NCBI RefSeq assembly: GCF_017591425.1
Contig: NW_024466599.1
Coordinates: 71,032,501-71,096,500, forward strand
Reading direction: 5' to 3'
Length of the DNA stretch: 64,000 bases
Source of the DNA: Ochotona curzoniae
Taxonomy: Eukaryota; Chordata; Mammalia; Lagomorpha; Ochotonidae
Numbering within the stretch: position 1 is the stretch's first letter; each line of letters opens with the position of its first letter. A program made the translations under genes and the position numbers. Positions 9,686-62,715 of the stretch are shown here, in pieces. Below the pieces are notes generated by a model. The model did not search any database. It was not told the DNA's origin and saw only the letters and a program-made list of their open reading frames with translations.

Positions 9686-10231
9686 TGTTAGTGTGTGAGT
9701 AAAATGCTATTGTTGGGCAGTGTGAGGTTCCTTTGTGTAGAGAAAACTGCTACTTTGCTAGGCCAGGAGGCCCTGGAGCTTGGGAGGATTCTGCTTTAGT
9801 GATAAATCTGTTCTTTGCTGACCTGCAACTTTGTGAACCCAGGTGCAGGGGGGCAAGGGCACAATTCTTCTGTGGTCCCAGGAACAGGAGGAAGATAAGG
9901 GTGTGAGAATGGGATGAACCATACAGATAATGGGTATGGGAACAGAACAGGCTGCCTATGCCTGAAGGCCATAAAAATGAACATGTCTAAGGTTGTTACT
10001 TTTGATGTATTTCCCAGCCCAAAAAGACCTATATAAGCTTCTGTCTTGGGCTGTTCGGGGTCTGACTGCCCTGCTTGGCTGGCCTGTGTGCCCCAAGTGC
10101 GGTCTGGCCCTAGCATGCTGGTGCAATAAACTGTGTTTGCTGTTTGCATTACCAGTGAGACTCTTTGTCGTTCTCTGGGGGTTGACTAGCTCGCACCCTG
10201 ACATCCGGGGGCTTTAGCCTGGACTCTAACA
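9686..10231 (+). repeat. 5' LTR
   Basis: It starts TGTTAG and ends CTAACA, giving short inverted termini. A TATA box (TATATAAG) is at 10030-10037 and the polyadenylation signal AATAAA is at 10125-10130. R should therefore begin about 25 bases after the TATA box. The 117-residue antisense frame in this LTR recurs in every copy because the LTR does; it is not a gene. Confidence 0.92.
10030..10037 (+). promoter_or_regulatory. LTR TATA box
   Basis: TATATAAG lies 95 bases upstream of AATAAA in the 5' LTR, the spacing expected for U3/R promoter and poly(A) signals. The same motif is at 14143-14150 in the 3' LTR. Confidence 0.7.
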
Positions 10232-13798: not shown

Positions 13799-14344
13799 TA
13801 TTAGAGTGTGGGTAAAATGCTATTGTTGGGCAGTGTGAGGTTCCTTTGTGTAGAGAAAACTGCTACTTTGCTAGGCCAGGAGGCCCTGGAGCTTGGGAGG
13901 ATTCTGCTTTAGTGATAAATCTGTTCTTTGCTGACCTGCAACTTTGTGAACCCAGGTGCAGGGGGGCAAGGGCACAATTCTTCTGTGGTCCCAGGAACAG
14001 GAGGAAGATAAGGGTGTGAGAATGGGATGAACCATACAGATAATGGGTATGGGAACAGAACAGGCTGCCTATGCCTGAAGGCCATAAAAATGAACATGTC
14101 TAAGGTTGTTACTTTTGATGTATTTCCCAGCCCAAAAAGGCCTATATAAGCTTCTGTCTTGGGCTGTTCGGGGTCTGACTGCCCTGCTTGGCTGGCCTGT
14201 GTGCCCCAAGTGCGGTCTGGCCCTAGCATGCTGGTGCAATAAACTGTGTTTGCTGTTTGCATTACCAGTGAGACTCTTTGTCGTTCTCTGGGGGTTGACT
14301 AGCTCGCACCCTGACATCCGGGGGCTTTAGCCCGGACTCTAACA
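13799..14344 (+). repeat. 3' LTR
   Basis: It is the same length as the 5' LTR (546 bp). Differences seen by eye are positions 2, 7 and 13 of the LTR, one base before the TATA box and one base near the end. The first dinucleotide reads TA instead of TG. It ends CTAACA, followed by the GGTC duplication. Confidence 0.92.
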
Positions 14345-17254: not shown

Positions 17255-17495
17255 GAAGCAGTGGGACAGGCATCTGGTGCAGCAGTTAAATCTCCACTTG
17301 GAACACCTGCATTCCATATTAGAGTAGCTGGCTTGAGTCCTGGCTCAACTTCCCATCTGTGCACACCCCGGAAGGCAGCAGTGATGGCTCAAGTATTTGG
17401 GGTCCTACCACTCACACTGGAGACTCGGTTTGAGCTCTGGGCTCCTAGCTTTGGCCGGGGCAAGCATTTGAGGGGTGTGGGGATGGGTGAACCAA
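17255..17495 (+). repeat. Old C-type SINE fragment
   Basis: It shows a C-SINE head (GGCATCTGGTGCAGCAGTTAAA), the body motif AGGCAGCAGTGATGGCTCAA and GAGCTCTGGGCTCCTAGC. Its right half (from about 17445) is also the left edge of the tandem units, where units 2 and 3 have different upstream sequence. Confidence 0.65.
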
Positions 17496-18736
17496 TGGTG
17501 TTTAAGCAAGCACACCTTGCAGCCAGAATTCCAACTGCCTCTTCATGATGTCCTTATGGACATATCCCCACATGGCAGCTCACAGTTTGGGCTGGTTGAT
17601 GACTCTTACTATCTGAATTACTTGTCAGCAGCTTCTCTTAACCAAAATAGTTGCTGAGGTTTTTTTTAATCTTGAAATTTCTGCAATAATGTTTGGCCAC
17701 TAAGGAAAATGATATTGTATGTCATGTTTGCTGGGAATCTGAAACAAACCACAGAAAATATGTTTGCTCAGATACCTAGACAAGAACCCTCTTAGTGGCT
17801 CTCCAGGTGCGGTCAAGGGCTGGAGTTCATGGTGCAGTTGCAGAGGAGGTGAGATTCCACCTGTCATCAGGAAGGCTTGGCCTGCATCATATTCCTGCTT
17901 CAAGTGTTCAACATTGAGCCACTGTGCTATCCCTTTCTGAGGTAGACTTTCTCACGAGTAACTCAGGCCATGCAAAGCTTCACTATTGGGCATGGAGTGG
18001 AAATAGCTCATCCAAAAGATGAACCAAGTGAAAGGAAGCCATGCTTATTTTAAGAGTCTAGAGTGCTAACCATTACACCATGGAACCCTCCCTGTTACTT
18101 TCAGGAACTTACAAACATGTCATCTCGAACCCTCAATGGGTTACCAGTCCCAGGGACCTTGAAGAACTACTGGCATTTAGGGAAAGCTGGGCCCTTCTTG
18201 ATGGCCAACTGGAGAACCTAGATACAAAGGGAGACACCTGGTCCCTCATCACACACGCCCTCCAGGTCCCCATTCTCTGGAGACACACTGAGCACAAGAC
18301 ACAGTGAGCGGGTGTGTGGGAGCTGCTCTTCCTCTGTGATAGGTGCCCAATGATGCACCATGAGCCACAGGATTCCAAAAGGCAGTGACGCATGCGCACA
18401 CGCCTGTGAGTTAACTGAATCCTAGTGTCTGCTCACACAGTTCCATGCTTGAGCCCTGTCATCCAGAGGGTTAATCAAGCACGGAACAAGGGTGCACATG
18501 CATAGACTCTGCTGGTCAAAATGCCCACTGCTGGAGCCTGGCCTCTGAAGGCCATCACTGTGCCCTAGCTGTTAAACCTTCAAGTGCAGGATCAGGGAGA
18601 AGTTGGTGGGAATAGTTTTTGAAGTGGCTGTGGGTCATGACCAGTAGAACTCTCCTTAAGACTTCAACAACCAGAACGTCTCCTCCGTGGAACTCAGCTG
18701 AATATCAGCCCCATTTGCATCCCTTCCCACCTGTTG

Positions 18737-21513
18737 TCACAATCTATTTCTCTTCTCTACAAGCCTATGGCTGTTTTCCCATCTTTGCAACAGAGGTGAC
18801 AGGGTCTCCTCTTTCAGTAGCCTGATGGACATGGGTGGCCCAAATCCAGTCAGCCCAAGGAATTCACTGTGCAACACAGTCACCCCGACAGCACCTAGGA
18901 CCCAGGTCATGCCTCGGTGTCCAGACCCACAAATGGCCCACAAACACACGGCCTGGTAGTGAAGGGAGTCCAGCCCTCCTCCTAAATCCAGGAAGATCAG
19001 GGTGGTGGGAAGAGGTTACGTGTGGGTGCTGGGAGCCACTCACAATGGTTGCCACCTCCTGATATATGAGTTCAATAAGAATAGCATCATCATCATGATA
19101 GTTAGGCTGGCACCCATGACAGTTATCCAAACAATGATGTTCTGACACACGATGTTGGTGAGTTGAATCCAGGGTGTGTCTTCACTGCGGTCACCTACAG
19201 AAGATGACACAGGGTAGAGGAGACATGAGAGAGGCAGCCAGCCACACAGACCCTGGCTGCTACCCACCACCCAGCCCAAGTTTGCCAGGGCAGCCCATGA
19301 GTATGGCTCACAGCAGAAAGTGAAACACCAGCACCTCATGGCTCACCTGCTGCTTCTGCAAGTGCTCTTGACCAAAGAACTGGCTTCCTTTAGGGAAGTC
19401 AATTTATTAAGCCACTGGCAGGCAATAGAGCAGCAGAAAGAAGCTGCCAGAAACCATGTGGAAGAATCAAAGTGAGAAACTACAGGAGGTGAAAAAGTCC
19501 TACTGCAGACTCAAACGGACAGTGGTGATAACATTTGGCTTACAGCCTTCTGAGTAATATAAGCCTGGCTCTGCTGCCCCTGCCCTGAAATGAATATCTT
19601 ATACAAAGGACCAGTCAGGCTCCTTCCCCTGCCTCAAGTGATGCAACAGCTGTCATCGCTCCCCTAGCACTCCTTGTATTCAGTACCAGGAGACTGCTCT
19701 GGGACACAGTCATGGCCTCCGTTTGTCCTGTCTCAGGGCAGGACACTTGGGGTTTTGTCTTATCCATAGAATGGGGCCCTGACGACTCTCCCACTCTCCT
19801 ACTCTCCCACAACACATCAGGCACATGGAAGGACAGACTGTACAGAATAGAAATTTAGGCTGTCACCCAAGGTTTGTGCTGCCAGGGAACAATGAATTCC
19901 ACTTTAACTCTGATCCCCGGAACAGAGTCCAGAGGGCCAGGACCTGCGTGGCCCCTCATGTCAGTGGTCACCCCCAAATACAAGCATGGTTACACTTCAG
20001 ACCACAGACTCCATATGGGGGGTAGAAGGTTAGACAGAGACCTCACACTGTCTGCCTTTGCCCCACAAAGGCTTGTTTAAAGAAGGCAAAGATGAGAACA
20101 AATATGGAGCCTATAAAGTTATGAGTACTTATACATGTACTGACGTATACTTACCTTTATCAATTTGTATCAGTGATTTGCCTCTCGTAGTGGCTTCTTC
20201 AGCCAGCAGTACTTCAAATGCATTCCTCAATAATGAGTACTCAATTAGTTCATCTTAAATGAGACAAAGGCATGTTAAAGTCAGTAATGTAGAACTGATG
20301 TATTTTGTAAGTTCCTATAGTGCTCTAAGAGGACCTGAAGAAATGATACAGCTCTCTGCTAAATATGATTTCTTTGTAAAGTTATTTTAATTTTTATTGT
20401 GATAGATATTTACAATAAAATTTGCATTTTAAGTATTTTTAAATGTACCACTCCAGAACTTTAGGAATATCCAGTGTTCTTTAAATATCACTTTTCCCCC
20501 CACAATTTCTTGATCACCCCCAAAAGAAACTATGGCTCCCATTCCACAGTACTCCCCGATTGAGCCCACCTCAGGCCCTGATCAGATAGGTGATTTGCAA
20601 ATACCTTCTCCTAGTCAATTACATACAGGAAACCAGCCTATCGGATAGCATTCATGCTCTCTCTCGCTCGCTGTCATTAGAAAACTTTGATAATAAAAGT
20701 TAAATGACTGAATGGCTATGAGCCAGGAGCTGCTTGGCATGTAACCAGGCATTAGCAGATGACTCTTCACCTCTAGCCAAGGGAATTTACCAAAGTAAAT
20801 TTGGCAAAACCTTTATCCTCACTTTTCTGAGTTGAAAAAAGTCACCATCAGAAGCTGGGGAGGAAATACAAGCAGCTTAAGGGATCCACTCACCGGCTGT
20901 GCCATACACTGCTTCTGCCTTATCACAAGGCACCAAAAGCCAGCAGATGTCTAAAACTATGAGCAGCACTGAACCCTGTACTTATACACACACATTCAAT
21001 GCCTTCTCTGCCACCCACTGCGGCCGTAACTTTTCAGCACCTGCTATCCATGTGGGAGACCAGGAAGAAGCTCCTGACACCTAGCTTCAGCTTAACCCAG
21101 CCCTCTTTGTCACAGCCATCCTGGCAGGGAACCAGCCTATCAGATATTCATTCATGCTCTCTCTTGCTCGCTCGCTCTCTTTAGAAAACTTTGATAGTAA
21201 AAGTTAAATGACTGTATGCTAGCATCTTCTGTCTCCAGATATTGAGAAAGCTTCAAGTTAGGAAATCAGTTGAAGTTCCTGCCTTCTCCCATGCACTAAA
21301 TCCCTACTGGCAATTGTGAGGGGTAGAAAAGGCAGGTAGAGGGAAAGCCTGTGTTCCCCCCTCAGCAGTGTCTCTGCCAGTGATTCAGGATCACAGAGAG
21401 TCTCTGCTCCTTGGTTGCAAGATGGCCATACCTTCCATCACACTGATGGGGCGAGGCTCCACTCCTCGCCACAGCATCAAAAACACTAAGCACTGTAACA
21501 GAATACACGACAT
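18737..21513 (-). CDS. Candidate small type I membrane protein gene, copy 1
   Basis: I do not recognise this gene. Proposed minus-strand exons: 21432-21513 (ATG at 21513, hydrophobic signal peptide MSCILLQCLVFLML..., donor G|GTATGG); 20155-20253 (99 nt, acceptor TTTAAG, donor AAAG|GTAAGT); 19044-19194 (151 nt, acceptor TTCTGTAG, donor ATT|GTGAGT); optionally 18737-18782 (acceptor TTGCAAAG, basic tail, stop TGA). The first two junctions are phase 1 and join in frame. The product would be about 125 residues, or 111 if exon 3 runs to its own TGA at 19040-19042. It has a signal peptide (about 1-17), a short acidic ectodomain, and one membrane span (about 79-101, rich in I/M/L) followed by SYIRRW. 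No N-glycosylation sequon is visible. Glycophorin-like proteins share this plan but no homology is shown. Splicing and expression are inferred. Confidence 0.42.
20628..21218. repeat. Internal direct repeat of about 85-93 bp within the tandem unit
   Basis: 20628-20712 and 21126-21218 share AACCAGCCTATC, CATTCATGCTCTCTCT, a (GCTC)n run and AGAAAACTTTGATA(A/G)TAAAAGTTAAATGACT, about 500 bp apart. A C-SINE-like piece (CATGTGGGAGACCAGGAAGA) lies between them at about 21050. Confidence 0.65.
20791..20854 (-). pseudogene. 64-nt exon-like block between exons 1 and 2 of candidate gene copy 1
   Basis: It has an acceptor (ATTTCCTCCCCAG) and a donor (TTTG|GTAAAT) and aligns with the 63-nt block at 6879-6941. 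At 64 nt it breaks the phase-1 frame and would bring in a TGA at the next junction. A T6 run suggests a one-base expansion. It is either skipped or a decayed exon. The same block is at 25129-25192 in unit 2. Confidence 0.4.
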
Positions 21514-21840
21514 TTTCGCAGCGCTCTGTCCAACACAAAGTGAACACAAGTTCAAGCTCAAGAGTCTTGAACTCCAGAATACCTGGAACACAGAGGGCAG
21601 TGATGTCACACTCAGCAAGGAGGGTTTATCATCATTGCAAAGGTGAGGGGCATGACAGGGACTCAAGAGAGACCCCTGGCTCTGTGCTGCCTCTGTAAAG
21701 CAGAAGTTGCGTGCAGGGCACCATCTGTGCCTGGGGGTTTAAACTTCCTGCAGCCTCTCAGCTGTGGGTGGGTCCTAGGACGGGGCGTCTCATGCCCGGA
21801 TCCCTGATGCTAGCCACCACGTGCACGTGGGAAGCTTTGC

Positions 21841-24800
21841 CTAGCTTTGGCCGGGGCAAGCATTTGAAGGGTGTGGGGATGGGTGAACCAATGGTGTTTA
21901 AGCAAGCACACCTTGCAGCCAGAATTCCAACTGCCTCCTCATGATGTCCTTATGGACATATCCCCACACGGCAGCTCACAGTTTGGGCTGGTTGATGACT
22001 CCTTATTATCTGAATTACTTGTCAGCAGCTTCTCTTAACCAAAAGAGTTGCTGAGTGTTTTTCTCTTGAAATTTCTGCAATAATGTTTGGCCACTAAGGA
22101 AAATGATATTGTATGTCATGTTTGCTGGGATTCTGAAACAAACCACAGAAAATTAGTTTGCTCAGATACCTAGATAGGAACCCTCTTAGTGGCTCTCCAG
22201 GTGCGGTTGATGGCTGGAGTTCATGGTGCAGGTGCAGAGGAGGTGAGATTCCACCTGCCATCAGGAAGGCTTGGCCTACGCCATGTCCCTGCTTCTAGTT
22301 GGAAGCATTGAGAAACTGGGATATCTCGTGTACAGTTTCTCACAACTAACTCAGGCCATGCAAAGCTTCAATTTTGGGGATAGAGGGGAAATAGCCCAGC
22401 CAAAAGATGAACCAAGTGGAAGGGAGCCATGCTTACTTTCAGGAACTCACAATCATGTCATCTCTAACCCTCAGTGGGTTTCCAGTCCCAGGAACCTTAC
22501 AGAACTCCTGGCATTTAGGGAAAGCAGGGCTCTTCATGATGGCTGATTGGAGAACCTAGATACAAAGGGAGACACCTGGTCCCTCATCACACACGCCCTC
22601 CAGGTCCCCATTCTCTGGAGACACACTGAGCACAAGACACAGTGAGCGGGTGTGTGGGAGCTGCTCTTCCTCTGTGATAGGTGCCCAATGATGCACCATG
22701 AGCCACAGGATTCCAAAAGGCAGTGACGCATGCGCACACGCCTGTGAGTTAACTGAATCCTAGTGTCTGCTCACACAGTTCCATGCTTGAGCCCTGTCAT
22801 CCAGAGGGTTAATCAAGCACGGAACAAGGGTGCACATGCATAGACTCTGCTGGTCAAAATGCCCACTGCTGGAGCCTGGCCTCTGAAGGCCATCACTGTG
22901 CCCTAGCTGTTAAACCTTCAAGTGCAGGATCAGGGAGAAGTTGGTGGGAATAGTTTTTGAAGTGGCTGTGGGTCATGACCAGTAGAACTCTCCTTAAGAC
23001 TTCAACAACCAGAACGTCTCCTCCGTGGAACTCAGCTGAATATCAGCCCCATTTGCATCCCTTCCCACCTGTTGTCACAATCTATTTCTCTTCTCTACAA
23101 GCCTATGGCTGTTTTCCCATCTTTGCAACAGAGGTGACAGGGTCTCCTCTTTCAGTAGCCTGATGGACATGGGTGGCCCAAATCCAGTCAGCCCAAGGAA
23201 TTCACTGTGCAACACAGTCACCCCGACAGCACCTAGGACCCAGGTCATGCCTCGGTGTCCAGACCCACAAATGGCCCACAAACACACGGCCTGGTAGTGA
23301 AGGGAGTCCAGCCCTCCTCCTAAATCCAGGAAGATCAGGGTGGTGGGAAGAGGTTACGTGTGGGTGCTGGGAGCCACTCACAATGGTTGCCACCTCCTGA
23401 TATATGAGTTCAATAAGAATAGCATCATCATCATGATAGTTAGGCTGGCACCCATGACAGTTATCCAAACAATGATGTTCTGACACACGATGTTGGTGAG
23501 TTGAATCCAGGGTGTGTCTTCACTGCGGTCACCTACAGAAGATGACACAGGGTAGAGGAGACATGAGAGAGGCAGCCAGCCACACAGACCCTGGCTGCTA
23601 CCCACCACCCAGCCCAAGTTTGCCAGGGCAGCCCATGAGTATGGCTCACAGCAGAAAGTGAAACACCAGCACCTCATGGCTCACCTGCTGCTTCTGCAAG
23701 TGCTCTTGACCAAAGAACTGGCTTCCTTTAGGGAAGTCAATTTATTAAGCCACTGGCAGGCAATAGAGCAGCAGAAAGAAGCTGCCAGAAACCATGTGGA
23801 AGAATCAAAGTGAGAAACTACAGGAGGTGAAAAAGTCCTACTGCAGACTCAAACGGACAGTGGTGATAACATTTGGCTTACAGCCTTCTGAGTAATATAA
23901 GCCTGGCTCTGCTGCCCCTGCCCTGAAATGAATATCTTATACAAAGGACCAGTCAGGCTCCTTCCCCTGCCTCAAGTGATGCAACAGCTGTCATCGCTCC
24001 CCTAGCACTCCTTGTATTCAGTACCAGGAGACTGCTCTGGGACACAGTCATGGCCTCCGTTTGTCCTGTCTCAGGGCAGGACACTTGGGGTTTTGTCTTA
24101 TCCATAGAATGGGGCCCTGACGACTCTCCCACTCTCCTACTCTCCCACAACACATCAGGCACATGGAAGGACAGACTGTACAGAATAGAAATTTAGGCTG
24201 TCACCCAAGGTTTGTGCTGCCAGGGAACAATGAATTCCACTTTAACTCTGATCCCCGGAACAGAGTCCAGAGGGCCAGGACCTGCGTGGCCCCTCATGTC
24301 AGTGGTCACCCCCAAATACAAGCATGGTTACACTTCAGACCACAGACTCCATATGGGGGGTAGAAGGTTAGACAGAGACCTCACACTGTCTGCCTTTGCC
24401 CCACAAAGGCTTGTTTAAAGAAGGCAAAGATGAGAACAAATATGGAGCCTATAAAGTTATGAGTACTTATACATGTACTGACGTATACTTACCTTTATCA
24501 ATTTGTATCAGTGATTTGCCTCTCGTAGTGGCTTCTTCAGCCAGCAGTACTTCAAATGCATTCCTCAATAATGAGTACTCAATTAGTTCATCTTAAATGA
24601 GACAAAGGCATGTTAAAGTCAGTAATGTAGAACTGATGTATTTTGTAAGTTCCTATAGTGCTCTAAGAGGACCTGAAGAAATGATACAGCTCTCTGCTAA
24701 ATATGATTTCTTTGTAAAGTTATTTTAATTTTTATTGTGATAGATATTTACAATAAAATTTGCATTTTAAGTATTTTTAAATGTACCACTCCAGAACTTT

Positions 24801-26180
24801 AGGAATATCCAGTGTTCTTTAAATATCACTTTTCCCCCCACAATTTCTTGATCACCCCCAAAAGAAACTACGGCTCCCATTCCACAGTACTCCCCGATTG
24901 AGCCCACCTCAGGCCCTGATCAGATAGGTGATTTGCAAATACCTTCTCCTAGTCAATTACATACAGGAAACCAGCCTATCGGATAGCATTCATGCTCTCT
25001 CTCGCTCGCTGTCATTAGAAAACTTTGATAATAAAAGTTAAATGACTGAATGGCTATGAGCCAGGAGCTGCTTGGCATGTAACCAGGCATTAGCAGATGA
25101 CTCTTCACCTCTAGCCAAGGGAATTTACCAAAGTAAATTTGGCAAAACCTTTATCCTCACTTTTCTGAGTTGAAAAAAGTCACCATCAGAAGCTGGGGAG
25201 GAAATACAAGCAGCTTAAGGGATCCACTCACCGGCTGTGCCATACACTGCTTCTGCCTTATCACAAGGCACCAAAAGCCAGCAGATGTCTAAAACTATGA
25301 GCAGCACTGAACCCTGTACTTATACACACACATTCAATGCCTTCTCTGCCACCCACTGCGGCCGTAACTTTTCAGCACCTGCTATCCATGTGGGAGACCA
25401 GGAAGAAGCTCCTGACACCTAGCTTCAGCTTAACCCAGCCCTCTTTGTCACAGCCATCCTGGCAGGGAACCAGCCTATCAGATATTCATTCATGCTCTCT
25501 CTTGCTCGCTCGCTCTCTTTAGAAAACTTTGATAGTAAAAGTTAAATGACTATGTATGCTAGCATCTTCTGTCTCCAGATATTGAGAAAGCTTCAAGTTA
25601 GGAAATCAGTTGAAGTTCCTGCCTTCTCCCATGCACTAAATCCCTACTGGCAATTGTGAGGGGTAGAAAAGGCAGGTAGAGGGAAAGCCTGTGTTCCCCC
25701 CTCAGCAGTGTCTCTGCCAGTGATTCAGGATCACAGAGAGTCTCTGCTCCTTGGTTGCAAGATGGCCATACCTTCCATCACACTGATGGGGCGAGGCTCC
25801 ACTCCTCGCCACAGCATCAAAAACACTAAGCACTGTAACAGAATACACGACATTTTCGCAGCGCTCTGTCCAACACAAAGTGAACACAAGTTCAAGCTCA
25901 AGAGTCTTGAACTCCAGAATACCTGGAACACAGAGGGCAGTGATGTCACACTCAGCAAGGAGGGTTTATCATCATTGCAAAGGTGAGGGGCATGACAGGG
26001 ACTCAAGAGAGACCCCTGGCTCTGTGCTGCCTCTGTAAAGCAGAAGTTGCGTGCAGGGCACCATCTGTGCCTGGGGGTTTAAACTTCCTGCAGCCTCTCA
26101 GCTGTGGGTGGGTCCTAGGACGGGGCGTCTCATGCCCGGATCCCTGATGCTAGCCACCACGTGCACGTGGGAAGCTTTGC
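21841..26180. repeat. Tandem unit 2 of the 4.3-kb array (4340 bp)
   Basis: It begins immediately after unit 1 with CTAGCTTTGGCCGGGGCAAG. Its first 0.7 kb matches unit 3 closely, and its remainder matches unit 1 almost exactly, so the array is a mosaic. It carries candidate gene copy 2. Confidence 0.95.
23075..25853 (-). CDS. Candidate small type I membrane protein gene, copy 2
   Basis: Same structure as copy 1, shifted by 4338-4340 bp. Exons are 25772-25853 (start ATG at 25853), 24493-24591, 23382-23532 and optionally 23075-23120. The exon and splice-site bases I compared are identical to copy 1, so the two copies would encode the same protein. The skipped or decayed 64-nt block is at 25129-25192. 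Near-identity over introns as well as exons shows recent duplication or conversion. It is therefore not evidence of selection on the protein. A collapsed or falsely expanded assembly is the main alternative. Confidence 0.42.
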
Positions 26181-27567
26181 CTAGCTTTGGCCGGGGCAAG
26201 CATTTGAAGGGTGTGGGGATGGGTGAACCAATGGTGTTTAAGCAAGCACACCTTGCAGCCAGAATTCCAACTGCCTCCTCATGATGTCCTTATGGACATA
26301 TCCCCACACGGCAGCTCACAGTTTGGGCTGGTTGATGACTCCTTATTATCTGAATTACAAAGAGTTGCTGAGTGTTTTTCTCTTGAAATTTCTGCAATAA
26401 TGTTTGGCCACTAAGGAAAATGATATTGTATGTCATGTTTGCTGGGATTCTGAAACAAACCACAGAAAATTAGTTTGCTCAGATACCTAGATAGGAACCC
26501 TCTTAGTGGCTCTCCAGGTGCGGTTGATGGCTGGAGTTCATGGTGCAGGTGCAGAGGAGGTGAGATTCCACCTGCCATCAGGAAGGCTTGGCCTACGCCA
26601 TGTCCCTGCTTCTAGTTGGAAGCATTGAGAAACTGGGATATCTCGTGTACAGTTTCTCACAACTAACTCAGGCCATGCAAAGCTTCAATTTTGGGGATAG
26701 AGGGGAAATAGCCCAGCCAAAAGATGAACCAAGTGGAAGGGAGCCATGCTTACTTTCAGGAACTCACAATCATGTCATCTCTAACCCTCAGTGGGTTTCC
26801 AGTCCCAGGAACCTTACAGAACTCCTGGCATTTAGGGAAAGCAGGGCTCTTCATGATGGCTGATTGGAGAACCTAGATACAAAGGGAGACACATTGTCCC
26901 TCATCACACATGCCCTCCAGGTCCCCTTTCTCTGGAGACACACTGAGCACAAGACACAGTGAGCGGGTGTGTGGGAGCTGCTCTTCCTCTGTGATAGGTG
27001 CCCAATGATGCACCATGAGCCACAGGATTCCAAAAGGCAGTGACGCATGCGCACACGCCTGTGAGTTAACTGAATCCTAGTGTCTGCTCACACAGTTCCA
27101 TGCTTGAGCCCTGTCATCCAGAGGGTTAATCAAGCACGGAACAAGGGTGCACATGCATAGACTCTGCTGGTCAAAATGCCCACTGCTGGAGCCTGGCCTC
27201 TGAAGGCCATCACTGTGCCCTAGCTGTTAAACCTTCAAGTGCAGGATCAGGGAGAAGTTGGTGGGAATAGTTTTTGAAGTGGCTGTGGGTCATGACCAGT
27301 AGAACTCTCCTTAAGACTTCAACAACCAGAACGTCTCCTCCGTGGAACTCAGCTGAATATCAGCCCCATTTGCATCCCTTCCCACCTGTTGTCACAATCT
27401 ATTTCTCTTCTCTACAAGCCTATGGCTGTTTTCCCATCTTTGCAACAGAGGTGACAGGGTCTCCTCTTTCAGTAGCCTGATGGACATGGGTGGCCCAAAT
27501 CCAGTCAGCCCAAGGAATTCACTGTGCAACACAGTCACCCCGACAGCACCTAGGACCCAGGTCATGC
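26181..27567. repeat. Tandem unit 3, partial
   Basis: It starts like unit 2 (4340-bp offset) but lacks about 23 bp near 26358 (offset becomes 4317) and has a cluster of substitutions at about 26893-26930. Near-identity stops at about 27567, after GTCATGCCT. From there only a diverged paralogue of the unit continues, to about 27890. Confidence 0.9.
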
Positions 27568-27784
27568 CTTGGAGTCCAGCCCTCCTCCTAAATCCAGGAA
27601 GATCAGGTTAAGTGTGTGCACTGCTAGTCACTCACAATGGTTGCCGTCTTCTGATGCATGAGATCAACAATGCAGTAGGATCAACATAAAAGTTAAGATA
27701 GCACCATGACAAAGGCAGTGACAATGATATTATGGCGCATGAAATTCAACAGCTGCGCACAGGGCATGTTCCCATCACGGACAC
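27392..27784 (-). pseudogene. Frameshifted paralogue of the candidate membrane protein gene
   Basis: A diverged copy of the membrane-span exon lies at 27636-27784, with acceptor TCTTCCGCAG and donor ATT|GTGAGT conserved. It is 149 nt instead of 151, and the frame breaks inside the membrane segment with an early TAA. The short basic-tail exon (27392-27437) belongs to the near-identical part of unit 3. No first or second exon was found upstream. This looks like an older gene copy partly overwritten by the young array. Confidence 0.5.
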
Positions 27785-46151: not shown

Positions 46152-47400
46152 TTACTGCTGGAGAGGGTTGTAGTCCCTAATTGTGGCCTGGAGAGGGCTC
46201 TGTGGGCAACAGAATGTAGGGGTGGAGTAACAGTTGAGAGTGAAGCCTGAGGCTTCGTGGATCTTTTCTTTGGCGAACCTTAGAAAACAAGGGGCAAATG
46301 TTAATAAAAGGCCTATAACTATTAATGGGGTTAGTATAGGCAAGCGTCAGGTTACTGGGGCGGCGGGGGGGAGGGGAGAAGGAGGGATTCCCAGATGTTA
46401 AAACCTGAATTTTTGCCCATATTTTACCAATTATGGAGTCAATCCCTTATTGACTGAAGATTTTCATCCCAGTTTCTACTATGCCAGATTCGTTAACATA
46501 ACAGCAATACTGTTCCTGTAGGAAGACACAGGTTCCCCCTTTGCTTGTGGTCACGAGATCCAGGGCTTTTCGATTCTGGAGTGCCACTTCAGCCAGCAAG
46601 GTGATTTGTCGCTGTAGTATTGCCAGGGACCAGTCTGAGTCTTCTATTGCCTGATTGAGGCAAGCTTGGAGCTTGTTGACCTTGATGATGGTGTGACCCA
46701 GAGCTCCTGCACTTCGGCCTACTGCCAGTAGGAAGGTCGCAACTGACACGCCTACCAAAGTTGGAATGAAGACTGTCTGGCTCTCAGGATCCTGGCAGTT
46801 TGAAATTTCCTGCTTAGCTTCTGACCAAAAAAGCAGCATTAGTTGGGGCACCTGATCGAAAATTCATACCAGTTGACTGAAATAAAAGAAAATGACATGA
46901 AAGAGGAATTGGTTCTGGAGGTAAGACAATTACATTGAACCATGTTGAGAGATAGAGCAGGAGCTGGCCAACAGAGAATTGGCCCTGGAGATCCTGTACA
47001 CCTTGTGATATAGCCCTGCATAGCACTGTGGCACGATACTGGGTTTCCCAGTGCCACAAAGCTCTTTGGGAATAATAACATTTGTCGAGAGGCAGGTTAG
47101 ACACATGCCCTTGACATTGCCATGGGTTCCAATACCCTAATGGAGCAAATCCAGCTGAAATGAAGAGAAAGGGGTTACCTGTTGTCAGGAAGAGGAGTAA
47201 GAAAGGAGTGAGGTAGTTGGGAGAGTTGGTAGGTCAAGGATTCCAGGAAGTATGATGAAGGAGTTTGGCAGCCACTGTCATGGTCAGGGTCACCAAGTGA
47301 GGTCTGGTCCACTGAGGTTGGAGTGAGCATGGGTGGAGAGGCATTGAGGTCTGATGGTGTGGTAGCAGCCAGGTCTAGAAGATAGCAGTCCATGTGTTCT
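46152..47400 (-). pseudogene. Broken class I ERV envelope (surface end, transmembrane subunit, anchor)
   Basis: Minus-strand frames at 46814-47104, 46447-46851 and 46152-46343 correspond in order to three parts. These are the end of the surface subunit, the ectodomain of the transmembrane subunit, and the membrane anchor with cytoplasmic tail. The middle part has the heptad region, the LQNRKALDL-type immunosuppressive-domain-like stretch and a cysteine cluster typical of gammaretroviral envelopes. A stop follows the ectodomain and the anchor is in another frame, so the gene is inactive. A weaker leader-like frame lies at 47175-47393. Upstream polymerase was not identified. Confidence 0.75.
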
Positions 47401-53469: not shown

Positions 53470-54995
53470 AAAATAATTTTTAATTAAGTTATTTTAATCT
53501 TTTTTGATGATTTTTACATGTTTAATTAGGGTAATAAGGGTCAAGGGTTACAGGGAAGTGGGTGAGACCATAATTTTGACATTCTCTTCTTTTCCTTCCT
53601 GTATCTGCGGGAAGGGAGGAAATAAAGGGAAAAGCCATATCCAGCCTTCCAAATGCTTCTGTTCCCTGGAAGGAGGACAGCTACCCGATACCACCTCAGG
53701 TCCCCAATGTGGGGCATGCTCTGAGGGTCCTGCTCAAGAGGTTTTGATAATTCAATAGTTCTGAATTGCTGCCGATCTTGCCACTCCAAGCATGAGGAAA
53801 TCTCTCCAGAATACACCAGCTGATACAGTCCACCTTAGAATCTCTGTTTCCCCAGATTTTCACTGCCAAGTCTTGGCTGAGGAAGATGATTGATTCGTTC
53901 TGTCCTCTGTCCTCTGCCGTGGTACCAGGTGTCCTTTGCAGACTGCAGTGTACTGCCATATCCTCCATGTGCACATGGCAATGCTGTCTGCTGCTCTGTT
54001 GCAGCCACTGAGGAGTCCCAGCTGTGACACATGCATTCCATGGTCAGACCATGGAATCTGCAATTCTCTCTGTGGCTGGGGTTCTAAGTCCAGCTATTCA
54101 TTTGGTTGGATCTTCACCTGAGAAACTTCATCTGAGGTGATCCCAGACCTAGTTCTCGTGTATGTTTGTTAATATAGGGTCTGGCACAATCTATTGCTCC
54201 AGTCAGTTTATGCACATGCTGATGGTTGCAATTGCTGGGTCAGTTCTGTCTTCAGCTGTGTCTTCTACACAAATGAATGGGTCTGCAGTCCAACCTGATC
54301 CTGCCCACCACACACTGGTCCTTCACATGAGCCAGTGGGAGCTGCAGCCTAGTTGAAGCAACTCCCCATAACCCCCACCAGGCCTGCCCCTACTCTGGTT
54401 CCCTTGCTTGCCAGAATGTACCACAGACTTATTCAGTCTGTCCTACATCCCATTCAGCTCTCATGCATGTCAGTGAGCATTGAATCCTAGTTCAACCCAA
54501 CCAACCTCACTATCCAGCCCACACATGTGCTGGCAGGGGCCACTATCTTTCTAGCCACACCTGCTCCAGTCCTGGTTCTCATGCTGGCTCTCAAGAAGGT
54601 GGTGCCCACTATTTCCCTACTGGGTCTACTCCCAGTCCCGGATCTTACACTCTCCAAGTGGTTCTGCAGTTTAGCTTGACAGTGTTTCCCCCTGTGCCAG
54701 CATCTGCCAGCTGATGTTGCGGCAAAGCCCAACCAACTGTCATCCTCTCTGACTTATGCATGTATGGTAGGTACACTCTGCCCAACCTGGCTTGTCCCTG
54801 ATCCAGCTTACATGCAAGCCAACAGGTATTGTAGCCCTGCCAGGCCTGGTCTGCCCCCAATCCCAACTGTTACACTCACTAGTGGGAGTGGTGGTCCAGC
54901 AGATCTCCCTGCAGCCCCGCTAATGGGTCGATACCTACCCCCTAGCCCCACCCGGGGTTGTGCTGGTTGAGTGCTGTGGCCCAGTTTGGCATACA
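53470..54995 (-). mobile_element. Tandem-repeat-bearing dispersed element, minus-strand copy
   Basis: Read on the minus strand: a tandem body of TGGCAGGTGCTG-type units (about 54180-54995), a unique region, then the 3' terminus CATGTAAAAATCATCAAAAA and an A-rich tail at 53470-53520. The unique region (53600-54180) matches 61370-61900 on the other strand closely, including a shared 92-codon frame (53696-53974). It shows no target duplication I could define. Confidence 0.75.
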
Positions 54996-58189: not shown

Positions 58190-61100
58190 GTGGCATGGGT
58201 GACTCAGTCTCCCAGCACATGGCTGTGGGTACCCGTGCTGGCCCAGGCTCCCTGCTGGGGATACTAGCTCCCCATCCAATGCTGCTAAACAGGGGGAAGA
58301 GTCCTGGGTTTATCCAAGCCTAAGGTTTGAGAACCTCCTCTCTCCACATTGATCATGCTGGGGAACAAACTCAGATAGCTGTGGGCATGCCCAGAACCAT
58401 GGCTCTGCCCACCGCTACCAAGTTGGTGGGCAGAGTCTAAGTAAGTCTGAGCAGCGGTGCAGGTGTCTGGGTCCCCCAGCCATGTAGCTGTGGCTGGGTG
58501 CACCCATGATGGCCCAGGCTTCCTGCTCAGGATCCTAGCTCCCTATCCACCACTGGTAAGCAGGAGGAGGGTCCTGGGCTTGTGTGTGGTCAGCAGACGA
58601 AACTCGGCACTGGTTGGTGCTCTGGCTGCCCAGCGACAAGCTCTAGGGTCTTGGGGGTATGAAAATACTGCCTACAAACATTCATGGATAAGGCCGTGGT
58701 ACGTGTAGGTGAGGAATGACTCCTGAGGGACAACCAATGACAGGGCAACTGTACTTGCAGGTAAGAGTGGGGATTGAAACCTGGAGGGGAGAGACCTGAA
58801 GATCTTTACGGTCAGACTGATGCACCAGCCCACATGGAAGACCTGGGTTGAGCGTATTAGCATGGCTGACCACGACACACCAGCACACATGCAAGCTATG
58901 GTTGGAGGCCTATCCGGCAGGGCTAGATCCCAGCACCTGTCAGTGAGTGTCAGCTCAGGGGATGGGTAACATTAGACTGGGCCATGACACCAACCAGCAT
59001 GCAAGAGAACCAGGTCTGGGGTTGGATTCTGTGGGGGATATGTGGGCCCAATCCTATAAAACTACAAGTCACACTGGTTAGCTTAAGAGTTGGGACAGTG
59101 AGGGGCTGAGCTAGGTGTGACCATGGAGCTCAAAGATGCTCACTGGTATGGGACTTGGAATAGGCAGGGCAGGTCCAGGTTACAGTATCCACACAAGCAA
59201 CCTAAAATAGGGTGTGGGGTGGGCTGGGCCGCACCAGCTCATACAAGGCTGGGACAAATAGATGGGGCAGGACACGTTGGGTAAGGGCCAAGCACCTGCT
59301 GGCATGTGTGAGATCTGGGTCTGGGAGTGGCCTGAGTGCGGGAACCTGAGAAACTCCCCTAGTGGGTCATAGCTCCCACTGATGAGCATGTGGTTCAGGT
59401 CTGAGAGTTGGGCAGGCTGGTCAGGATAGCTCCATTGGTAAGTGTATGAGTTAGTTTTGGAAGAGGACAGATTGGGTGGGGCCAAGCAAACCATAGCCCA
59501 TTGACAAGTGCAGAAACTAGGACAGAGTGCAGGTCAAGCCAGGCTAGGCTGCCACAGCTACTGGTTTGCATGAGTCAGAGATGAGAGCAGACTGAGTAGG
59601 GCCAGGTTACAGCACCCACCAGTGAGAATTGGGACTGGAGGCCTTCTGGGCCAGGCCAGGCTGCAGCATCCAAAGGCAAGGAACAAGGGGAGAAGCTGTG
59701 CCAAGCTGGGTCAGAACAACTACTGGCATGCATGAGATCTCTGGCTCGGATCAGGCCTGGCTGGGGAGCCAAAGGATGCCCTGTGTTGGTTGTGGGTCCC
59801 ACTGGTGAGCACAGAGGCCAGAGTGAGGAATGCAGTCTGCTCGGATATGGATGCAGCCTCCCTAAGGCACAGGTGTGGACTGGGTCTAGGGTGTGCAAGA
59901 CTGGGTTAGACTCCAGCACCCATTGGATTTCGTGAGAACCAAGAAGGGTATAGGATGGACTGGGCTATGTCTCTGTCCCAGCTGAGCCAAGTGTGAGCTG
60001 TGTCTGGGTATGAACCTGGCTTGGCTGGGCTGTAGCACCCAACAATAAGAACCAGAATGGGTGGGGGCCAGACAGGAAAGGTCACTATTCTGGCTAGGAC
60101 AGAAGGTTGACTAAGGAGGCCTGGCCCATGGACCTACCAGTGTGTGTGAGATCTGGCTTTGGGAGAGGTTCCGATGAAGGAACTTGGCAACTCCTCTGTT
60201 GGGACACAGTCCCTGCAGGTCAGCCTAAGACCCAAGAAAGGGAGCAGCCCAGATCAGACCAAGCCAGGATATGGTACCCAGGGGCTTATCTTTGGCTCAG
60301 GCCTAGGGCAAGCCAGGCTGGGTCAGTTCACATCACCGACTGGTAAATCCAAGAGCCACAATGGTGTGTGGGTTATGCCAGGTCAGGCCACAATACCAGC
60401 CAGTTCACACAGTTCAGGACTGGGGGCTGGGTGGGTTGGTTAGGCTGTAGTTCACACCAGTGTGAGCTGGAACTGGGGGCTGGCTGGGCCGAACTAGACT
60501 ACAGCACCCACTGGCAAATGCCAAGATGAGGTGGGTCATGTCAGACTTGGCTGCAGCACCCAACCAGCACACATGAGAACCAGAGGGAGAGGGTGTGAAC
60601 CGGATCCCCTGTTGGGCCAGTATTTCCACTAACGAGCGTGAGATTTGGGATTGGGGGCAGACCAGGCTGGGTAGGGCTACACCTGTTGGCTTGCATGTAA
60701 GCTGGATCAGGGACAAGCCAGGTTGGGCAGAGTGTACCTACCATACATGCATAAGTCAGAGAGGATGACAGTTGGTTGGGCTTTGCCGCAACATCAGCTG
60801 GCAGATGCTGGCACAGGGGGAAAAACTGTTAAGCTAAACTGCAGAACCACTTGGAGAGTGTAAGATCTGGGACTGGGAGTAGACCCAGTAGGGAAATAGT
60901 GGGCACCACCTTCTTGAGAGCCAGCATGAGAACCAGGACTGGGGCAGGCATGACTAAACAGATAGTGTGGGCTGGATAGTGAGGTTGGTTGGGTTGAACT
61001 AGGATTCAATGCCCATTGACATGCATGAGAGCTGAATGGGACGTGGGACAGACAGGACCAGTATGCTGTACATACTGGCAAGCATGGGCACCAAGACAGA

Positions 61101-61935
61101 AGGTGGACCTAGTGGAGTTGATTGAAGGTTGCTCCGACTAGGCTGCAGCTCCCATTGGTTTGCGTGGGGACCCAGTGTGTGGTGGGCAGGATCGGGTCTG
61201 GGCTCCAACACCCATCAGTTTGCGTAGAAGACGGGGCTGGAAACAGAACTGACCCAGCAATTGCAACCATCAGCATGTGCATAAGCTGACTGGGGCAACA
61301 GACTGTGCCAGACCCTATATTAGCAAGCATACACAAGAACCAGGTCTGGGATCCCCCAAACTGAATAGCTGGACTTAGAACCCCAGCCATGGAGAGAATT
61401 GCAGATTCCATGGTCTGACCATGGAATGCATGTGTCACAGCTGGGACTCCTCAGTGGCTGCAACAGAGCAGCAGACAGCATTGCCAGGTGCACATGGAGG
61501 ATATGGCAGTACACTGCAGTCTGCAAAGGACACCTGGTACCACGGCAGAGGACGGAGGACAGAATGAATCAATCATCTTCCTCAGCCAAGACTTGGCAGT
61601 GAAAATCTGGGGAAACAGAGATTCTAAGGTGGACTGTATCAGCTGGTGTATTCTGGAGAGATTTCCTCATGCTTGGAGTGGCAAGATCGGCAGCAATTCA
61701 GAACTGTTGAATTATCAAAACCTCTTGAGCAGGACCCTCAGAGCATGCCCCACATCGGGGACCTGGGATGGTTGGGAGGCTGGCTGTGGCTTCTCCCCTT
61801 ATCCCTTCCCTACCCCTAGATACAGGAAGAAAAAGAGAATGTCAAAACAATGGTCACACCCATTTTCCTAAAGCCCTTGACCCTTCGCATTGTAATCAAA
61901 TATGTAAAAAGTATCAAAAATAAAATTTATACAGT
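58190..61935 (+). mobile_element. Tandem-repeat-bearing dispersed element, longest copy, plus strand
   Basis: The 5' part holds two copies of a segment of about 270 bp (58190-58320 and 58460-58600 share GGCCCAGGCT, AGCTCCC and GAGGGTCCTGGGCTTG-like text). A long tandem body (about 58880-61370) follows, with units containing CAGCACCCACTGGCATGCAT and GAGAACCAGGACTGGGG-like sequence. Next is a unique region (61370-61850), and then the 3' end ATGTAAAAAGTATCAAAAAT with AATAAAATTT. The layout (tandem body, unique end, A-rich terminus) recalls composite retroelements moved by L1. That comparison is inference. Confidence 0.7.
61488..61871 (+). other. 127-codon frame in the unique 3' region of the dispersed element
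   Basis: The first 90 codons are nearly identical in the copy at 53696-53974, and recognisable but stop-containing in the copy at 29.6 kb. It has no known domain. Shared ancestry of the repeat explains the similarity without invoking coding. Confidence 0.3.
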
Positions 61936-61939
61936 AAAG

Positions 61940-62715
61940 AAAACATTGTCATAAACTGAAGTGACTATTTTTTCAGTGGTTACCCCTTCTTCTGAAGATA
62001 CAGTTGGTGATTCTTTGGCTTGCAGTACAACTTGAGTCTGCTTTTTGTGTATATGTTCTTGGAATGAGTTTATAATTTTCAAGGTTATGTTTTGTATTTC
62101 AGCATCTAGAGGCTTGTTTCTTAATCCATGTTTGAAAACATAGATAAAAGCTTTGATATAAATTGCACAGCAGTTTCTTGTATCATGTGAGAAGGCGGTT
62201 GGCGAGCCTGTCTGGGCTCATGCTGAGCAATCTGTAATGTTCATGATACCTTTAAGAATATTTTCTACATCAGCCTCAGCTTATGCAGCATACTGAAATG
62301 GACCTCAGTCTCCAGAGAGGGTTGGAACTAACTGTCAGTCATTTTCCTTAGAAGTTGAAACCATTCTACAACCACTGGTGATATAATTTTGTATGCTCTC
62401 ACGAGATCCAAATTGTGGCAACAAATTAGTATAAATCATTTGAGCCACCACTTGAATAACCTCATCATCATTAGGATGTAAAAGGTTGGACATTCTGCAT
62501 AACCATATGTTTTTCTCTAGAGATCTTTTGACACAACTGTGCTTACTAATATCATGTGAAAGAAATCTAATCCCATGTATAAATTCTCTCCAGAATGTTT
62601 GTGTTGGGTTCTATACAAAAAATTTTTGAGAGGAGGCAAGACATTATGTCCTTTAAGAACTCATGAAATTTGTTAACTCCGGGAAGAGTCGTCGATTTCA
62701 CAATTCTAGGGCATA
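61940..62715 (-). pseudogene. Protein-derived pseudogene fragment, parent not identified
   Basis: On the minus strand several long stretches read as protein across frameshifts and stops, for example segments around 62380-62470 (VIQVVAQMIYTNLLPQFGS) and 61950-62130 (FQEHIHKKQTQVVLQAKES). It is intronless over 0.77 kb and therefore probably a retrocopy or one large exon. It is bounded on both sides by dispersed-element copies. I do not recognise the parent gene. Confidence 0.5.

What the first reader, a model, noticed from the sequence alone, without database searches (positions are those of the whole stretch)
18737..25853. Tandemly duplicated, apparently undescribed small membrane-protein gene
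Two near-identical units each hold a minus-strand exon set whose first two splice junctions keep phase 1. They would encode a signal peptide, a short ectodomain and one membrane span ending in an arginine-rich motif, about 111-125 residues. I cannot assign the protein to a family. The plan resembles glycophorin-type proteins (small phase-1 exons, single span), but that is only a comparison.
Basis: partly seen in the sequence, partly recalled or inferred. Interest (0 to 1): 0.75.

Follow-up and report, generated by a model that had tools for sequence, protein, structure and literature searches.

The report
Duplicated small membrane-protein gene, family unknown
A short mammalian DNA segment carries two almost identical copies of what looks like a real small cell-membrane protein gene plus part of a decayed older copy; its family and function could not be identified with the data at hand.

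Summary
Two minus-strand units (A, B) have identical coding exons (0 of 326 nt differ), phase 1 junctions and a 111-residue product with one membrane span. No model of this kind appeared in 200 Markov resamplings at the observed scores; relaxed, the mean was 0.025 per 60 kb (thresholds post hoc). New here: (1) a diverged exon 3 (copy C, 27784-27632), frameshifted twice, whose divergence from A is constrained in exactly the claimed frame (25 of 48 residues identical, 18.4 expected, P 0.003, dN/dS 0.26; the five other frames show nothing). (2) The 3' tails fit unequal crossing-over, which gave B the old copy's 3' end. (3) Exon 3's stop overlaps a GTGAGT donor; a candidate exon 4 would give 134 (A) and 149 (B) residues, unproven. 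Glycophorin features tested were not met. No family was found, but the searchable sets hold little mammalian sequence, so 'undescribed' stays open. The window's own assembly could not be searched. No RNA data exist here; function is inferred from anatomy only.

The parts
21432..21513 (-). Unit A exon 1 (coding part): ATG, hydrophobic N-terminus, ends in phase 1
   Evidence: donor AAG|GTATGG scores 4.4 bits
20155..20253 (-). Unit A exon 2 (99 nt, phase 1-1), charged ectodomain
   Evidence: donor AAAG|GTAAGT 8.5 bits, acceptor weak, 1.5 bits
19040..19194 (-). Unit A exon 3 with membrane span, YIRRWQPL and TGA; alternatively exon ends at 19044 before donor GTGAGT (19043-19038)
   Evidence: frame-specific constraint against copy C
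17666..17738 (-). Unit A candidate exon 4 (phase 2); product 134 aa. Unproven
   Evidence: picked post hoc from 14 acceptors above 3.5 bits between 18973 and 13500
25772..25853 (-). Unit B exon 1, identical to A
24493..24591 (-). Unit B exon 2, identical to A
23378..23532 (-). Unit B exon 3 with TGA; alternative end at 23382 before GTGAGT
22015..22132 (-). Unit B candidate exon 4; product 149 aa. Lies in the copy-C-type part of the middle tail. Unproven
   Evidence: one of 2 acceptors above 3.5 bits in the stretch scanned (to 21900)
27632..27784 (-). Copy C: diverged exon 3 of an older paralogue, two 1-nt frameshifts; exons 1 and 2 not found in the window
17444..18928 (-). 3' tail of unit A
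21840..23266 (-). Middle (hybrid) tail after unit B: A-type down to about 22576, copy-C-type from about 22547, with one 23-nt A-like block at 22041-22019 that C has lost
26180..27582 (-). 3' tail of copy C

Best explanation
A and B are two copies of a real host protein-coding gene for a small type I membrane protein: hydrophobic leader, about 60-residue charged ectodomain, one span, basic juxtamembrane YIRR. They arose when 3' tails of two older paralogues (X, ancestor of A and B, and C) paired out of register and crossed over unequally. This duplicated X and gave B the downstream sequence of C; C then, or already, decayed. Shown: identical exons, third copy, hybrid tail, frame-specific constraint in exon 3. 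Inferred: expression, cleavage of the leader, topology, splicing from the exon 3 GTGAGT to exon 4 with a cytoplasmic tail carrying a YxxI motif (YNII), and that the protein works through its span and juxtamembrane segment, as a small accessory or adaptor subunit of a membrane complex. The functional step is the weakest: I give it about 0.25 on its own.
For: No model in 200 of 200 resamplings at observed thresholds. Exon 3 of A against C: substitutions by codon position 15/12/24, 25 of 48 residues identical against 18.4 expected (P 0.0033), dN 0.35, dS 1.36; none of the other five frames deviates. The result holds when 3 codons round each gap are dropped (19 of 36, P 0.008), and before the first gap (10 of 25, P 0.02), but not after it alone (15 of 23, P 0.11). 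The acceptor side of intron 2 matches in 41 of 45 nt between A and C, while exon 3 matches in 93 of 144 ungapped nt (51 substitutions). Span and C-terminus keep 20 of 31 residues, the stem 6 of 18 (alignment, two X columns left out; boundary chosen by me afterwards; Fisher P 0.043). Tail comparison goes from A=B (75 columns) to B=C (118 then 95 columns), broken only by 23 columns where C has a deletion; gap columns, and unalignable sequence beyond about 17442, are in these counts.
Against: No RNA data. No homologue in any set searched. Only exon 3 has comparative evidence; exons 1 and 2 rest on ORF and splice sites, and the exon 2 acceptor is weak (1.5 bits). No AATAAA or ATTAAA lies between B's exon 3 and unit A (next one 20398, inside A's intron 1). 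Leader has no basic N-terminal residue and no convincing cleavage site (inspection). Exon 4 carries an early in-frame stop in A relative to B, and a 23-nt deletion in C; it was picked afterwards from 14 (A) and 2 (B) acceptors. The exon 2 helix is not more amphipathic than shuffles (P 0.72).
Confidence: 0.7

Rival explanations
1. A and B are a recently amplified pseudogene or non-expressed relic: the family was once coding (hence the signal between X and C), but the X lineage is no longer translated, and the two identical copies reflect only recent duplication.
For: Copy C is frameshifted. A and B are too alike to show present-day constraint (0 of 326 CDS differences; one substitution and one indel in 3.0 kb). 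No canonical polyadenylation signal after B exon 3 before unit A. A's exon 4 frame is shorter than B's.
Against: Exons 1-3 of X are open with GT..AG sites intact after a divergence from C with dS above 1; a relic of that age should carry stops (inference).
Confidence: 0.2
2. The second unit is an assembly artefact: two haplotypes or a repeat loop were laid end to end, so the real genome has a single X gene followed by the tail. (Compatible with a real gene, so these odds do not exclude the best explanation's coding claim.)
For: The 3.0-kb comparison shows one substitution and one 2-nt indel, an allele-like difference. The junction lies in a repeated tail, where assemblers can loop.
Against: The middle tail is a mosaic of the two outer tails, switching in the order expected for unequal crossing-over.
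Confidence: 0.15
3. A true glycophorin-family gene (GYPA/GYPB/GYPE-like tandem array), fast-evolved beyond profile recognition.
For: Small exons in phase 1 and one span followed by IRR. The resemblance of the span's end to glycophorin A is recalled, not computed.
Against: No Pfam family matched at E up to 10 for the 111-aa and 149-aa products, and only DUF6737 at 0.26 for one of two exon-3 forms; that the library holds a glycophorin profile is recalled. PDB: none for the 111- and 149-aa products; the exon-3 profile met only an unrelated chain at E 0.87. Ectodomain not Ser/Thr-rich, no sequon, no small-xxx-small motif.
Confidence: 0.04

Closest known systems
Glycophorins (GYPA/GYPB/GYPE group)
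   Same: Small type I single-span protein, phase 1 exons (glycophorin exon phases recalled), tandem copies (recalled), basic residues after the span.
   Different: Glycophorins carry sialylated O-glycans and/or N-glycans (passages of PMC6591965); here 8 Ser/Thr in 60 ectodomain residues, no sequon, no small-xxx-small dimer motif, no Pfam match.
Small sperm membrane proteins such as FIMP and TMEM95
   Same: Short, leader plus one span; FIMP has a transmembrane isoform and TMEM95 is a type 1 single-pass protein with signal peptide (passages of PMC11673484).
   Different: No sequence link could be tested; testis expression unknown here. Compared on plan only.
Short single-span signalling partners (DAP10, DAP12, FcR-gamma type; recalled)
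   Same: Leader exon in phase 1, very short ectodomain, one span (recalled for these proteins).
   Different: No charged residue inside the span, no ITAM; the YNII motif considered here lies in the unproven exon 4.

Membership tests
Glycophorin A family (PF01102, accession recalled) | Match to the family profile | tested here: not met
   0 Pfam families at E up to 10 for the 111-aa and 149-aa products; of two exon 3 forms one gave only DUF6737 at 0.26. Presence of the glycophorin profile in the library is recalled
Glycophorin A family (PF01102, accession recalled) | Ser/Thr-rich, heavily O-glycosylated ectodomain | tested here: not met
   8 Ser/Thr in 60 residues, no N-glycosylation sequon; family feature from PMC6591965 passages
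Glycophorin A family (PF01102, accession recalled) | GxxxG-type dimerisation motif in the span (recalled) | tested here: not met
   No [GAS]xxx[GAS] from residue 76 on
Glycophorin A family (PF01102, accession recalled) | Erythroid expression | not testable with these tools
   No RNA data
Small type I single-span membrane protein (structural class) | Cleavable N-terminal leader | tested here: inconclusive
   Strong hydrophobic stretch (12-residue mean 2.82), but weak cleavage site by inspection
Small type I single-span membrane protein (structural class) | One hydrophobic span with basic cytoplasmic edge | tested here: met
   19-residue Kyte-Doolittle maximum 2.2 in exon 3, followed by YIRRWQPL
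Protein-coding gene | Frame-specific constraint between copies | tested here: met
   Exon 3 A against C, P 0.0033 in the coding frame, 0.40-0.94 in the five others; exons 1 and 2 have no such test
Protein-coding gene | Spliced transcript | not testable with these tools
   No reads available

The most novel reading that the evidence does not exclude
An undescribed mammalian family of small type I membrane proteins, in which unequal crossing-over between 3' tails gave copy B the C-terminal exon of a dying paralogue: A and B would share all exons up to the span but differ in the cytoplasmic tail (products of 134 and 149 residues, both tails with YNII), so a recent duplication would have produced two differently signalling versions at one stroke.
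Probability: 0.15. Interest if true: 0.55.

Novelty: new member of a known kind. Interest (0 to 1): 0.35.

Why it matters
If expressed, this is a gene for which no family was recognised, in a mammalian genome, with a preserved record of how unequal crossing-over can duplicate a gene and swap its 3' end. Fast-evolving, tandemly copied small membrane proteins are often tied to reproduction or host-pathogen contact (general knowledge), so expression data alone would point to a role. If annotated already in lagomorph databases, it is ordinary.

Tried and rejected
Glycophorin membership: rejected on profile and anatomy. Amphipathic-helix idea for exon 2: no better than shuffles. A resemblance of exon 2 to CRF/urocortin peptides was noted from memory; the 41-residue segment found no PDB chain at E up to 10, and it was dropped. 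Homologues: none at E up to 1 in the 5.8-billion protein set for the 111-aa (1 candidate) and 149-aa (7 candidates) queries; in viral contigs 2 stretches matched one of 6 peptide patterns and neither was confirmed; none in phages. All are poor sources for a mammalian gene. Control for the protein set: a window fragment that I take, from recall, for LINE-1 ORF2 (Pfam named no family for it) found 10 proteins of 11 candidates. Location from neighbouring genes: of 10 ORFs that I chose from the 200 listed, Pfam named above its cut-offs FSIP2 in two and a retroviral envelope in one; no synteny anchor resulted. Rfam 0 at gathering scores, tRNA 0. Exons 1 and 2 of copy C: not found in the window by blastn or tblastn. 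Literature: 7 searches; in the listings I saw nothing on this gene (one search listed 20 of 1,574 papers, 10 of 18). Two papers were seen in passages only, the rest as listings.

Splice-site frequencies and hydrophobicity scales were typed from recall, so bit scores are approximate. An apparent acceleration of exon 3 against its flanks was considered as positive selection and rejected: synonymous sites are diverged too (dS 1.36), which fits old paralogues with later-homogenised tails.

Full report
What is there. On the minus strand, unit A has exons 21513-21432 (82 nt coding), 20253-20155 (99 nt) and 19194-19040 (with TGA); unit B has 25853-25772, 24591-24493 and 23532-23378. Both junctions are GT..AG and phase 1, and the product is 111 aa: hydrophobic N-terminus, ectodomain, one span (19-residue hydropathy maximum 2.2), then YIRRWQPL. 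A and B differ at 0 of 326 coding nt and, over 3.0 kb, by one substitution and one 2-nt indel.

Is it more than chance? I scored models of the form leader exon, internal exon, span exon, phase-compatible, with splice scores and hydropathy at least as good as those observed. The two real copies were the only models in the 64-kb window. With one unit removed (59.7 kb left), 1 locus was found on the minus strand and 0 on the plus strand; in 200 blockwise Markov resamplings the strict count was 0 in 200 and the relaxed mean 0.025 loci.

A third copy gives a better test. Searches showed a diverged exon 3 (copy C, 27784-27632) with two 1-nt frameshifts against A. Over 48 ungapped codons there are 51 substitutions in 144 nt, 15/12/24 by codon position; 25 residues are identical against 18.4 expected when the same substitutions are placed at random (P 0.0033). 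The five other frames give P 0.40 to 0.94. Nei-Gojobori dN is 0.35, dS 1.36, ratio 0.26. Without 3 codons round each gap: 19 of 36, P 0.008; before the first gap 10 of 25, P 0.02; after it 15 of 23, P 0.11, not significant alone. So exon 3 was probably under protein-level constraint in the claimed frame for part of its history; copy C itself is now broken. The intron 2 acceptor side agrees in 41 of 45 nt, against 93 of 144 in the exon. The span and C-terminus keep 20 of 31 residues against 6 of 18 in the stem (boundary set afterwards, two X columns left out).

How the array arose. Three 3' tails lie at 17444-18928, 21840-23266 and 26180-27582. In a three-way alignment, B agrees with A for 75 variable columns (A coordinates 19036-18238) and then with C for 118 and 95 columns, apart from 23 columns that are one deletion in C. 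Gap columns are counted, and the last group includes sequence beyond about 17442 where A is no longer alignable. This is the pattern of one unequal crossover between the tails of two older paralogues, X and C, which duplicates X and leaves a hybrid middle tail. An assembly loop could mimic it, which only long reads can exclude.

Where the gene ends. TGA after QPL overlaps GTGAGT, present in A, B and C; by my recalled matrix the donor is weak (2.8 bits), in part because of T at -1. There is no AATAAA or ATTAAA between B's exon 3 and unit A. In the distal tail an acceptor (5.4 bits) opens an in-phase exon: A 17738-17666, product 134 aa; B 22132-22015, product 149 aa. It was picked afterwards: one search found 14 acceptors above 3.5 bits in the stretch scanned behind A and 2 behind B, and the other acceptor shared by both (18217 and 22555) opens 28 and 7 codons. 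Candidate exon 4 and the sequence after it are alike between A and B in 56 of 57, 56 of 60, 58 of 59 and 59 of 60 per block, then 46 of 57 and 12 of 23 where the repeat ends. The blocks before it give 52 of 55, 53 of 60, 43 of 48, 20 of 22, 53 of 60, 39 of 54, 53 of 60, 56 of 60 and 55 of 60 (gap columns left out). The difference is modest and may be coding, untranslated or other conservation; A has an early stop and C a 23-nt deletion there. I count exon 4 as a candidate only.

Family. Pfam: 0 families for the 111-aa, 149-aa and 39-aa proteins at E up to 10; of two exon 3 forms one gave only DUF6737 at 0.26. PDB: 0, and one unrelated chain at 0.87 for the exon 3 profile. The large protein set gave 0 at E up to 1, but a control with a fragment that I take from recall for LINE-1 found just 10 proteins, so absence there says little. 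Glycophorin features tested were not met: 8 Ser/Thr in 60 residues, no sequon, no small-xxx-small motif, against a family described as carrying sialylated O- and/or N-glycans (passages of PMC6591965).

Verdict. A probable real gene of unknown family, recently duplicated, with a broken older paralogue; function inferred only from anatomy. Interest moderate, because the likeliest outcome is an already annotated uncharacterised lagomorph locus.

Noticed in passing
9686-10231 and 13801-14344, with a related inverted copy at 45339-44794: A 544-bp direct repeat, 99.3% identical, flanks about 3.6 kb: looks like the LTRs of a young endogenous retrovirus. A further copy (96%) lies inverted at 45 kb, near the envelope fragment at 46447-46863.
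   Followed up: no
46447-46863 (-): ORF of 138 aa matching the retroviral envelope family TLV_coat (E 5e-19).
   Followed up: no
61927-62610 (-): Two ORFs matching fibrous sheath-interacting protein 2 (FSIP2, E 1.5e-15 and 3.4e-19), in profile order; perhaps a gene fragment or pseudogene. Two paper searches found nothing.
   Followed up: partly
17442-17760, 21840-22150, 26180-26490 (-): Block at the end of each 3' tail somewhat more conserved between tails than most of the sequence before it, with no AATAAA or ATTAAA in the B and C copies.
   Followed up: partly
53690-54885 and 60626-61772: Inverted repeat pair, 97% and 87% identical in adjoining pieces.
   Followed up: no
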